Program-made: the position numbers and the translations under genes
From: Arthrobacter sp. OV608
GTDB taxonomy: Bacteria > Actinomycetota > Actinomycetes > Actinomycetales > Micrococcaceae
NCBI GenBank assembly: GCA_900110595.1
Contig: FOEZ01000010.1
Span: 100,379-164,378 of the forward strand
DNA: 64,000 bases
Reading direction: 5' to 3'
Shown here: positions 34,156-36,546 of the stretch, one piece after another
Numbering within the stretch: the stretch's first letter is position 1
Layout of the letters: each line of letters begins with the position of its first letter
Notes under the pieces: generated by a model
Database searches by the model: none
What the model was told of the DNA's origin: nothing
The model's input: only the letters and a program-made list of their open reading frames with translations

Positions 34156-34219
34156 GGCGGGAGATAGGGGCCGTGCCCGCTTCGCGGTGCCCACCACGCC
34201 GCGGCCCCTATCTCCCGCC
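34156..34219. repeat. Palindromic element, copy A (ureE-ureF gap)
   Basis: Outer arms GGCGGGAGATA (34156-34166) and TATCTCCCGCC (34209-34219) are perfectly complementary and enclose a 42-nt core, from GGGGCCGTGCCCGC at 34167 to CGCGGCCCC at 34208. The core itself pairs at its ends (GGGGCCG with CGGCCCC). The same core is present at 35639-35680 with different but again complementary arms. Confidence 0.9.
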
Positions 34220-34260
34220 TCCGCCGATTCGATAGGTCGCCTTGCGTCGAGGTGCCTTGG

Positions 34261-34926
34261 ATGAGTTATCAGCTTGCTTTGCAGCAGCTTGTCGACTCTG
34301 CGCTTCCTACTGGGGCTTTTGCTCACTCGCTTGGGTTTGAGACTTATGTCGATGCCGGGGTGGTCGCTGATGAGGTTGGTTTTGGGCGGTGGTTGGCTGC
34401 TTTTATCTCTCAGCAGTTGACCTATTCTGATGGGCTGGCCATCCGGTTTCTTTATGAGGGCTGGGATATTGGGGAGCTGGATTCTTTGCTCTCTGCTTCG
34501 CTGTTGCCGCGGGAGGTTCGGGAGGCTTCCTTCAAGATGGGGCTTCGGTTGTTGGAGATTGGGGCGGAGGTCTTTCCCTCGCATGGGCTGGGGCTGTACC
34601 GGGACCTGGTGGCCACTGGCCGGGCCGCAGGGCACCAGCCGCTGGCGTTCGCCGTCGTGGCTAGTTCACTGGGCGTGCCGATGGAGGAGGCGCTCGCCGC
34701 CTACCTTTTCGCCGCCGCCACCTCCCTGACGCAGAACGCCGTCCGCGCTATCCCCTTGGGCCAGAACGCCGGGCAGCGGCTGCTTCGGCAAGCGGCCGAC
34801 GACGTTGCTGCCGCCGTCGAACGGATCCCACGCCTGTCGCCGGACGACTTCGGCGCCGTCAGCCCGGGACTCGAAATTTCGCAAATGCGGCACGAACGCC
34901 AACGTGCCCGGATGTTCATGAGCTAG
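34261..34926 (+). CDS. ureF: Urease accessory protein UreF
   Basis: UreF works with UreD and UreG in the apo-urease activation complex and acts as GTPase regulator of UreG. The ATG at 34261 has GAGG nine bases upstream; the GTG at 34252 is part of that ribosome site. The 221-aa helical protein has [19 protein letters not shown] at the N terminus and the family [19 protein letters not shown] helix. The first 300 bp use many T-ending codons and little C, unlike the rest of the gene and unlike ureC, ureE and ureG. The shift begins right after palindrome copy A. Confidence 0.94.
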
Positions 34927-34954
34927 CAGTGTTTTTGGATTCAAGGAGGAAACA

Positions 34955-35572
34955 ATGAGCGAACCCATCAAGATCGGCATCGGCGGACCCGTCGGAGCAG
35001 GCAAAACCCAGCTCGTGGAGCGCCTCACCCGCCACATGAGCGCCGAAATCTCCATGGCCGCCATCACCAACGACATCTACACCATCGAGGACGCCAAAAT
35101 CCTCGCCGCCAACGGCATCCTCCCCGAAGACCGGATCATCGGCGTCGAAACCGGCGGCTGCCCCCACACCGCCATCCGCGAAGACACATCCATGAACACC
35201 GCCGCCATCGAGGAACTCAAAGCCCGGCACCCAGACCTCCAGGTCATCTTCGTCGAATCAGGCGGCGACAACCTCTCCGCCACCTTCAGCCCCGAACTTG
35301 TCGACTTCTCCATCTACATCATCGACGTGGCCCAAGGCGAAAAAATCCCCCGCAAAGCCGGCCAAGGCATGATCAAGTCCGACCTCTTCATCATCAACAA
35401 AACCGACCTCGCACCGCACGTCGGCGCGGACCTATCAGTGATGGAACGGGACTCCCGCGAATTCAGGGGCAACAAACCCTTCTGCTTCACCAACCTCAAG
35501 ACCGACGAAGGGCTCGACGCCGTGATCGATTGGGTGAGGCGCGACGTCCTTATGCTTGACCTCGCGTCATGA
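34955..35572 (+). CDS. ureG: Urease accessory protein UreG (GTPase)
   Basis: UreG is the SIMIBI-class GTPase that drives nickel insertion. The 205-aa protein has the P-loop GGPVGAGKT (10-18), the metal-binding CPH motif (C69-P70-H71 in [14 protein letters not shown]), [16 protein letters not shown], and the guanine-specific NKTDLA. AAGGAGG precedes the ATG. Its TGA overlaps the first possible start of ureD. Confidence 0.98.
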
Positions 35573-36546
35573 GCACGACGGCGGTCGAGTCGCCCAAGCG
35601 GGTGACTGGCTTGGCCAAGGGCGCTTCACCGGGGATAAGGGGCCGTGCCCGCTTCGCGGTGCCCACCACGCCGCGGCCCCTTATCCCCGGCTCCGCTTGC
35701 GCTGACCGGTCACCGATGGGGGAGCTCGCCCTGAGCATTGAGCAGAGAGGCGGCAGGTCAGTCGCGACGCATCAGTACCATCGGGGTGCTCTTCGCGTAC
35801 TCCGCCCTCATTACCTCGATGACTCCGGGCAGGTTTGCTACGTCGTGGTTAATCCTGGCGGGGCCTACCTTGGAGCTGACCTCTTTCTTGTTGATGTGGA
35901 GGTGCAAGCAGGGGCTGACCTGTTGTTGACTACACAATCCGCGACGAAGGTTTATCGGACTCCGGGGTCTTTTGCTGAGCAGCGGATGGCCATTCGGCTG
36001 GGGGAGGGGGCGCGGCTGGAGCTTGTGCCTGACCAACTGATTGCCTACCGCGAGGCCAGCTACCGGCAACGGACGCACGTCACTGTCCGGCCGTCGTCGT
36101 CCCTGGTGATGGCTGAAGTGGTGACGCCCGGATGGTCTCCCGACGGGGCCGCGTTCCGGTATGAGGAAGTGCGGCTGCGGAACGAGATCCATGTTGAAAC
36201 TGAGGGCGACAGCCAACTGCTGGCGCTCGACAACCTCCTGATCCGGCCGCCGTTGGGGGATGTGACCGGGCTGGGGTTTATGGAGGGGTACAGCCACCTC
36301 GGATCGCTGGTTGTTGTCGACCCGCGGGTGGACCAGGCCCTCGCCGATGACCTGCACAGCGTAACCTCGGAAAACGATGCCTTGACCGGCATTTCAATCA
36401 CCCGCAGCGCGGCGGGCACCACCGGGCTGGTCCTGCGATCGCTCTCGAACAGCACAGGCGAACTGAACCGCCTGCTCGGCGCTTGCACAGCCCTGCTTCG
36501 GAAACGGTGGTACGGGCAGGAACCGCTGAACCTGAGGAAGCACTGA
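35569..36546 (+). CDS. ureD: Urease accessory protein UreD, N terminus uncertain
   Basis: UreD is the scaffold linking urease to UreF-UreG. The first start, an ATG overlapping the ureG stop, gives 325 aa, but residues 20-42 are encoded by palindrome copy B ([15 protein letters not shown]). UreD similarity begins at [16 protein letters not shown], so the ATG at 35716 (276 aa) may be the true or ancestral start; neither start has a strong ribosome site. Family features include [28 protein letters not shown] and [14 protein letters not shown]. Codon third positions in the first 250 bp after the palindrome are T-rich. Confidence 0.9.
35629..35690. repeat. Palindromic element, copy B (inside the ureD 5' frame)
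   Basis: Arms CCGGGGATAA (35629-35638) and TTATCCCCGG (35681-35690) enclose the same 42-nt core as copy A (35639-35680). Arms of A and B differ in sequence yet each pair is perfectly self-complementary. In the ureD frame the core reads [15 protein letters not shown]. Confidence 0.9.

What the first reader, a model, noticed from the sequence alone, without database searches (positions are those of the whole stretch)
34156..35690. Two palindromic elements in the urease operon with identical cores but covarying arms
Copy A (34156-34219) and copy B (35629-35690) share a 42-nt core exactly. Their outer arms are different sequences (GGCGGGAGATA/TATCTCCCGCC against CCGGGGATAA/TTATCCCCGG), but in each copy the two arms are perfectly complementary. 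Arm sequence changed while pairing was kept, which points to selection or a copying mechanism acting on the hairpin itself. They stand in the same relative place, just 5' of ureF and of the UreD homology region. This could be a REP/BIME-like mobile palindrome, or an RNA element that balances or couples accessory-protein synthesis.
Basis: seen in the sequence. Interest (0 to 1): 0.7.

Follow-up and report, generated by a model that had tools for sequence, protein, structure and literature searches.

The report
Translated palindromes with fixed loop, drifting arms
A small hairpin-forming DNA repeat of the soil bacteria around Arthrobacter sits inside translated parts of genes (urease helper proteins among them), where its loop hardly changes while its two arms keep changing together; it resembles the protein-coding palindromes known from Rickettsia, and its paired arm changes look more like a copying mechanism than RNA selection.

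Summary
In detail: two palindromes (34156-34219, 35629-35690) share a 42-nt core and have different, perfectly paired arms. They belong to a repeat family with matches in 156 of 198 same-genus genomes, at both urease junctions and at grpE/dnaJ, argB/argD, glpK/leuS, fruA, cysD and others. The own genome gave three clear copies. At three sites loops are 93-96% identical, arms 43-80%, yet 94% of outer-helix cells pair, with no one-sided change such as G-C to G-U. Both window copies lie in open frames: copy B in the UreD N-terminus, copy A in a 57-codon leader whose stop overlaps the ureF start. Without duplicates, 41 of 41 hairpin-bearing ureG/ureD and 53 of 55 ureE/ureF junctions keep such an arrangement (shuffled spacers about 20%). 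REP/RAYT membership fails: few copies, coding, Y1 transposase in 0 of 1 own and 1 of 101 genus genomes. Best reading: protein-coding palindromes of the Rickettsia (RPE) kind in Actinobacteria, arms kept paired mainly by template switching (inferred), frames kept by selection on the host gene. How they spread is unknown; translation is not shown.

The parts
34156..34219 (+). Copy A: 64-nt palindrome, 18-bp perfect arms, 28-nt loop, between ureE and ureF
35629..35690 (+). Copy B: 62-nt palindrome, 17-bp perfect arms, same 28-nt loop, inside the ureD reading frame
34167..34208 (+). 42-nt core of copy A, identical to copy B
35639..35680 (+). 42-nt core of copy B
34091..34264 (+). Leader ORF (57 aa, MLNTVTDTS...[19 protein letters not shown]...CLG): starts at an ATG inside ureE that corresponds to ureF's own start in hairpin-free relatives, reads through copy A, its TGA overlaps the ureF ATG (ATGA 34261-34264)
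33631..34110 (+). ureE (Pfam UreE_N)
34261..34926 (+). ureF (Pfam UreF)
34955..35572 (+). ureG (Pfam cobW/HypB/UreG); its TGA overlaps the ureD ATG
35569..36546 (+). ureD frame with an N-terminal extension of about 50 aa ([52 protein letters not shown]...) that contains copy B; the Pfam UreD match starts at residue 92

Best explanation
The two palindromes are copies of a low-copy palindromic repeat family of the Arthrobacter group that behaves like the protein-coding palindromic elements of Rickettsia. A copy consists of a conserved loop of about 28 nt (with GCCCGCTTCGCGGTGCCCNCCAC) closed by GGCCG/CGGCC or a variant of it, and by outer arms whose sequence is free but complementary. Copies sit in dispensable, probably translated stretches (N-terminal extensions of UreD, ArgD and CysD, a linker of FruA and of a dehydrogenase E2, a leader in front of UreF) or in gaps between genes. 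Shown here: family membership, positions, covariation, both orientations, open frames that are fused or coupled to the next gene. Inferred: (1) the element entered these sites by an unknown insertion process, not by a RAYT; (2) arms are kept complementary mainly by template switching inside the palindrome during DNA replication, which copies a change from one arm to the other and can also flip the loop; (3) selection on the downstream gene keeps only versions that leave the frame or the stop/start overlap intact, so that translation and coupling pass through the hairpin.
For: Family: 156 of 198 genus genomes, 51 of 61 with a covariance model, 21 of 149 genomes and 8 of 32 genera in a family sample, several weakly. 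Covariation: 14 of 18 outer pairs change on both sides, 217 cells, 0 one-sided changes. Loop/arm contrast: 28-nt loops 0.93-0.96 identical, 13-nt arms 0.43-0.54 between and 0.59-0.80 within three sites. Parsimony on a ureF+ureG tree, small branches: both-sided Watson-Crick changes 26 and 22, changes to a mismatch 9 and 11, to G-U 0 and 1 at E/F and G/D. The loop is found in both directions at the same position with the frame open both ways: UreD 6 reverse rows from 4 genomes, ArgD 6 forward and 5 reverse. Frames: hairpin G/D junctions 34 in frame + 7 restarts = 41 of 41; E/F 48 four-nt overlaps + 3 one-nt overlaps + 2 in frame of 55; shuffled spacers with a random length shift about 20% in frame or four-nt overlap. 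The loop is read as [23 protein letters not shown] or, reversed, [13 protein letters not shown], so its conservation is not peptide conservation. The FruA copy of L126 covers residues 157-182, between EIIA (6-147) and EIIB (192-282). Template switching homogenises arms and inverts spacers in yeast (PMC8604942, abstract).
Against: No mobiliser and no new insertion was seen; target-site duplications could not be established. The tree used for event counting is noisy, its tie-breaking favours paired ancestors, and 18 and 21 branches change four or more pair columns at once, which could be recombination, replacement by another copy or wrong topology rather than template switching. Rows share ancestry, so the frame counts are not independent. 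Six G-U cells do occur in the 57-copy alignment, counted there as changes on both sides. The excess of A-C over G-U on the mRNA strand (11 to 0 at the urease sites, 20 to 4 in all) is unexplained. Translation is inferred from frames: 25 of 45 hairpin-bearing ureD rows (duplicates kept) have an in-frame ATG just downstream of the hairpin, and all 45 have an ATG, GTG or TTG between the hairpin and codon 12 or so of the conserved part.
Confidence: 0.6

Rival explanations
1. RNA element under selection: the hairpin acts in the mRNA (for example a ribosome-pausing, stabilising or protein-binding hairpin that tunes accessory-protein synthesis), and selection on pairing produces the covariation.
For: Strong folding, covariation with 94.2% of outer-helix cells paired, operon-internal positions, and a loop constant across unrelated sites, as expected if a factor binds it.
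Against: No one-sided changes in 57 copies (six G-U cells occur, as both-sided changes); on the mRNA strand 20 A-C against 4 G-U mismatches over seven site classes, 11 against 0 at the urease sites (which corrects the strand of one locus). Many relatives with the urease genes have no hairpin at E/F (36 of 91 distinct scored junctions; 35 of these 36 keep UreF in frame). Both orientations occur at one site, so the RNA loop is not constant. No Rfam family reached its threshold at the hairpins in four loci.
Confidence: 0.18
2. REP/BIME of the RAYT type: extragenic palindromes spread by a Y1 (HUH) REP-associated transposase.
For: Short palindromes, often at gene junctions.
Against: No Y1_Tnp in the own genome, a match in 1 of 101 genus genomes; three clear copies in a 4.9-Mb genome; copies inside coding frames; GTAG/CGTC near the ends in 6 cases among 113 distinct hairpins, against 23 in control windows of up to 155 rows.
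Confidence: 0.05
3. Intergenic palindromes with an incidental open frame: the loop has no stop in any frame, so long open frames through it mean little, and the genes start downstream.
For: The core has no stop in six frames (by reading); 25 of 45 ureD rows have an ATG just after the hairpin and all 45 some possible start codon; some sites are gaps between genes (glpK/leuS, grpE/dnaJ, rho/prfA, infB/rbfA).
Against: 41 of 41 G/D and 53 of 55 E/F hairpin junctions are in frame or end in a stop overlapping the next start, against about 20% for shuffled spacers. Several ureD rows have no ATG after the hairpin (for example L184, L192). The copies in FruA and E2 lie between two domains of one protein.
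Confidence: 0.13
4. Local duplication or gene conversion between the two urease copies explains the identical cores.
For: Cores identical in the window.
Against: Same loop in other genes and genomes; identical cores within a genome no more common than in shuffles (5 of 18, p 0.29).
Confidence: 0.04

Closest known systems
Rickettsia palindromic elements (RPE) and Wolbachia protein-coding palindromes (Ogata et al. 2000, 2002, 2005: not read, known from passages of PMC10969869, PMC2229807 and PMC3733652)
   Same: Stem-loop repeat found both between genes and in frame inside unrelated protein genes
   Different: Different phylum; here mostly 60-66 nt (long forms about 115-125 nt) against 105-146 bp; 1 to 5 matches per matching genome; positions shared across a genus; arms differ between copies but stay paired; frame kept also through leader ORFs with stop/start overlap. 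Sequence relation to RPE was not tested.
REP/BIME and RAYT systems
   Same: Small palindromes at gene junctions
   Different: Few copies, in coding frames, no RAYT, no GTAG/CGTC tag pattern
Coding palindromes of nematomorph mitochondria (PMC6649704, abstract and passages)
   Same: Inverted repeats inside coding sequence whose two arms change together; template switching is proposed there
   Different: There long perfect repeats inside conserved protein regions; here a dispersed family with a fixed loop in dispensable stretches
Template-switch maintained hairpins (PMC8794818, PMC8604942; outline and abstract)
   Same: Arm homogenisation, spacer inversion, both-sided changes
   Different: Those are mutation footprints in RNA genes and yeast genes, not a repeat family

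Membership tests
Rickettsia-type protein-coding palindromic elements (as a kind) | Long stem-loop repeat in several unrelated genes | tested here: met
Rickettsia-type protein-coding palindromic elements (as a kind) | Inserted in frame in conserved protein genes | tested here: met
   UreD, ArgD, FruA, CysD, E2; by open frames only, no protein data
Rickettsia-type protein-coding palindromic elements (as a kind) | Also found between genes | tested here: met
   glpK/leuS, grpE/dnaJ, rho/prfA, infB/rbfA
Rickettsia RPE (by descent) | Sequence homology to RPE families | not tested
   no RPE sequence was fetched
REP/BIME | High copy number, extragenic | tested here: not met
   three clear copies in the own genome (150 of 8636 first-look candidates scored); copies inside coding frames
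REP/BIME | RAYT (Y1_Tnp) in the genome | tested here: not met
   0 in the own genome; 1 of 101 genus genomes
REP/BIME | GTAG or CGTC tag at one end | tested here: not met
   6 occurrences near the ends of 113 distinct hairpins; control windows 23 in up to 155 rows
MITE | Target-site duplication and a parent transposon with the same ends | tested here: inconclusive
   Filled and hairpin-free sites differ by several layered insertions and deletions (by reading); no parent element was searched for beyond Y1_Tnp
Intrinsic terminator | Stem followed by a T run | tested here: not met
   No T run after copies A and B (by reading); the scan covers loops of 3-8 only, so it is silent on them. Some glpK copies have T-rich tails
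Known structured RNA | Match to an Rfam family | tested here: not met
   L001, L002, L035, L042: nothing at the hairpins above gathering score; best E 0.067

The most novel reading that the evidence does not exclude
A genus-wide family of translated, self-correcting palindromes: replication template switching rewrites both arms together (and flips the loop) while the 28-nt loop is held fixed by an unknown recognition step, giving RNA-like covariation without RNA selection, at sites where translation must pass through the hairpin to keep operon coupling.
Probability: 0.4. Interest if true: 0.75.

Novelty: new variant of a known kind. Interest (0 to 1): 0.6.

Why it matters
Protein-coding palindromes were described in Rickettsia and Wolbachia. 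In the listings of the searches made here (open library only, some listings cut to the first hits) I saw no report of them in Arthrobacter or other Actinobacteria. The family also offers a natural test of two questions: whether covarying hairpins always mean selection on RNA (here both-sided changes appear with almost no one-sided G-U), and how operons keep translational coupling when a strong hairpin lands between genes (here the frame, or a stop/start overlap, is kept through the hairpin). Several sites in many genomes make both testable.

Tried and rejected
RAYT/REP: rejected. Gene conversion between the two urease copies: no signal. Phage or plasmid carriage: no phage record, no viral contig for the exact 23-letter pattern, 2 plasmid records, large replicons (1.0 and 1.35 Mb) of one Arthrobacter strain (the one opened has no annotation at the match). 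Rfam: nothing at the hairpins. Spread beyond the family: in the order sample 13 of 198 genomes match, the 7 outside the family only weakly (E above 1e-4). A clean empty site with target duplication could not be shown: hairpin-free ureG/ureD spacers often look like later deletions (L022 keeps one arm) or carry another repeat. AlphaFold of UreD from 9 sequences gave mean pLDDT 52.5; residues 1-45 are below 50, which fits disorder, but so are other stretches, and the model is too weak to rest on. The loop insert of the long form resembles another dispersed repeat, also in the window at 2329-2365 and 2442-2478.

Limits of the counts. The search scored four first-look candidates per genome, those scored a small part of the first-look candidates, so copy numbers are lower bounds. 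The 101 urease loci are a chosen set: part was picked by hairpin similarity, 60 (L160-L219) by UreG score. Identical spacers were dropped only; one search gives the uncorrected numbers (45 G/D and 57 E/F hairpin rows). 23 loci could not be scored at G/D and 6 at E/F. In the set of 60 alone: E/F hairpins 22 four-nt overlaps, 1 one-nt overlap, 2 in frame and 2 other of 27; G/D 23 in frame and 6 restarts of 29. The null counts in-frame and four-nt overlaps only; by that rule E/F was 52 of 57 and G/D 45 of 45. The E/F stop finder was faulty and was replaced. In one search three grpE/dnaJ loci had no direction and were left out; I gave L068 and L121 the wrong strand: L068 (no mismatch) is forward by its peptide, and L121 was corrected, which changes 19 A-C to 5 G-U into 20 to 4. 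While checking this report I also withdrew L179 as an example of a ureD row without a later ATG (it has one).

Full report
Observation. The sequence at 33900-36000 shows both palindromes as described. Their arms are 18 and 17 bp, fully complementary, each with 28 nt between the arms. The 42-nt core occurs twice in the window, with 0 expected in 100 shuffles, and both copies fold far better than shuffles.

Family and range. With up to 3 mismatches the core occurs only twice in the own genome. A looser DNA search finds relatives of copy A in 156 of 198 same-genus genomes; it scored four candidates per genome, so copy numbers are lower bounds. An exact 26-nt core scan of named genomes returns 13 stretches, all titled Arthrobacter, Pseudarthrobacter or Paenarthrobacter. 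I aligned 57 distinct copies without gaps (58 were extracted; a long-form fragment of L038 was left out) and built a covariance model. In the own genome it gives three clear matches (E below 1e-10): the two urease copies and one at argB/argD; four more have E above 1. In 61 genus genomes 51 have at least one match, 1 to 5 each. In the family sample 21 of 149 genomes and 8 of 32 genera match, several weakly. In the order sample the seven matching genomes outside the family are weak. Phages and viral contigs gave none.

Sites. Besides ureE/ureF and ureG/ureD, copies lie at argB/argD, grpE/dnaJ, glpK/leuS, inside fruA and cysD and, in other genera, at rho/prfA, infB/rbfA and inside a 2-oxoacid dehydrogenase E2. 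Gene identities were checked on examples against Pfam; argB, argD, glpK, fruA and cysD are my readings of broader Pfam families. The FruA copy in L126 covers residues 157-182, between EIIA (6-147) and EIIB (192-282). The E2 copy in L136 lies, by its coordinates, near residues 157-179, between lipoyl domain (6-77) and E3-binding domain (200-235).

Loop against arms. At the two urease sites and grpE/dnaJ the 28-nt loop is 0.93-0.96 identical both within and between sites, while 13-nt arms are 0.43-0.54 identical between sites and 0.59-0.80 within. In 57 distinct copies, 14 of the 18 outer pairs show changes on both sides (217 cells), 94.2% of outer-helix cells pair, and no cell is a one-sided change such as G-C to G-U; six G-U cells occur, counted as changes on both sides. 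Among mismatches in distinct hairpins, read on the mRNA strand, the urease sites have 11 A-C or C-A and no G-U; over all seven site classes 20 against 4, with 27 of other kinds in 1972 cells (correcting). A parsimony count on a ureF+ureG tree gives, for small branches, 26 (E/F) and 22 (G/D) both-sided Watson-Crick changes, 9 and 11 changes to a mismatch, 0 and 1 to G-U; 18 and 21 branches change four or more pairs at once. That tree is noisy, its tie-breaking favours paired states, and these numbers are indicative only. Selection on RNA pairing would be expected to leave G-U intermediates; copying of one arm from the other would not.

Orientation. At ureG/ureD six of 35 short rows have the loop reversed relative to the gene (four genomes, as two records came in twice); five of the six share the arm start GCCGGATTTGG with a forward copy. 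At argD six copies read forward and five reversed, all in frame (GPARFAVPDHTRAPIAG and DGGPGVVGHREAGGAPIAA types). At grpE/dnaJ 18 rows are forward and 10 reverse. Arm homogenisation with spacer inversion is what template switching between inverted repeats does in yeast (PMC8604942, abstract); PMC8794818 (abstract) argues that it creates and maintains RNA hairpins.

Reading frames. At ureG/ureD the ureD frame opens, in most rows, at an ATGA or GTGA overlapping the ureG stop. Of 78 scorable spacers 70 have a length that keeps this frame. After dropping identical spacers, 41 hairpin-bearing junctions remain: 34 in frame with UreD and 7 in which the frame passes the hairpin and ends in a stop that overlaps a new in-frame UreD start. 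The loop is read in different frames and directions: [23 protein letters not shown] and, reversed, [13 protein letters not shown]. At ureE/ureF an ATG inside the end of ureE starts ureF in 35 of 36 distinct hairpin-free junctions. It is kept in the hairpin-bearing rows, where it opens a leader frame through the hairpin whose stop overlaps an in-frame UreF start by four nt in 48 of 55, by one nt in 3, or runs into UreF in 2; 2 do not fit. In the window this leader is 34091-34264 and ureF starts at 34261. Shuffled spacers with a random length shift give an in-frame or four-nt arrangement in about 20%. The rows share ancestry, so the contrast is a description, not a probability. Translation itself is not shown: 25 of 45 hairpin-bearing ureD rows have an ATG just after the hairpin, and all 45 have some ATG, GTG or TTG there.

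Decay and nesting. Some sites show tandem remnants (L185, L196, L215), a chimera with arms of two types (L168), a one-arm remnant (L022) and a long form whose loop holds a segment like another dispersed repeat (by reading). A further repeat kind, read as VVEPVET or GFRQAQSP, occupies the same UreD extension in several genomes. The UreD N-terminus is thus a place where small repeats accumulate in frame.

How it most likely works. I take it as a palindromic repeat of the protein-coding kind. Insertion mechanism: unknown; a RAYT is excluded as a general explanation. Arm pairing: kept mainly by template switching (inferred). Loop: kept by something that acts on nucleotides, since it is the same whether read in different frames and directions or lying between genes. 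Host side: selection keeps the frame or the overlap so that UreF and UreD are still made (inferred). An RNA role cannot be excluded.

Known relatives. RPEs are described in passages of PMC10969869, PMC2229807 and PMC3733652 as stem-loop elements of 105-146 bp (about 150 in one), intergenic and in frame inside genes. The present family meets these as a kind; descent from RPEs was not tested. In the listings of my paper searches I saw no report of such elements in Arthrobacter or Actinobacteria. RepRanger (PMC12306157, passages) has one Arthrobacter in a table of REP counts; PMC2996958 (passages) describes another palindromic coding repeat, with one Arthrobacter plasmid gene.

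Noticed in passing
window 2306-2531: A 113-bp tandem duplication at the 5' end of a radA-like gene; each unit holds a 37-nt stretch like the insert in the long form of the palindrome loop, with further relatives elsewhere in the genome.
   Followed up: partly
L170, L174, L175, L177, L197 (ureG/ureD spacers); L014, L197 (ureE/ureF): Another short repeat (GGTGGTCGAGCCTGTCGAGACC type, read as VVEPVET or GFRQAQSP) sits in the same UreD extension in other genomes and in front of ureF, sometimes in tandem. No match in the window with up to 3 mismatches.
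   Followed up: partly
L098-L100, L103, L106-L109, L113-L116, L118-L120 (glpK end): The glpK/leuS copies begin shortly after the glpK stop and have very varied arms; some are followed by T-rich tails, so they may serve as terminators.
   Followed up: partly
L134/L154 (G265:C7) and L137/L157 (G249:C59): Two copies in opposite orientation about 280 and 100 bp apart in other genera, near grpE/dnaJ and rho/prfA.
   Followed up: no
L035 3608-3900, L042 269-552: Rfam RF02514 (5' ureB sRNA) matches the strand opposite ureC in L035 and L042 at E 5.8e-27 and 1.1e-25; probably conserved coding sequence.
   Followed up: no
window 2557-2627: Inverted and direct repeat around AGAGAGCGCTCTCT just upstream of an ORF at 2654 that looks like a solute-binding protein (by reading), operator-like.
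   Followed up: no
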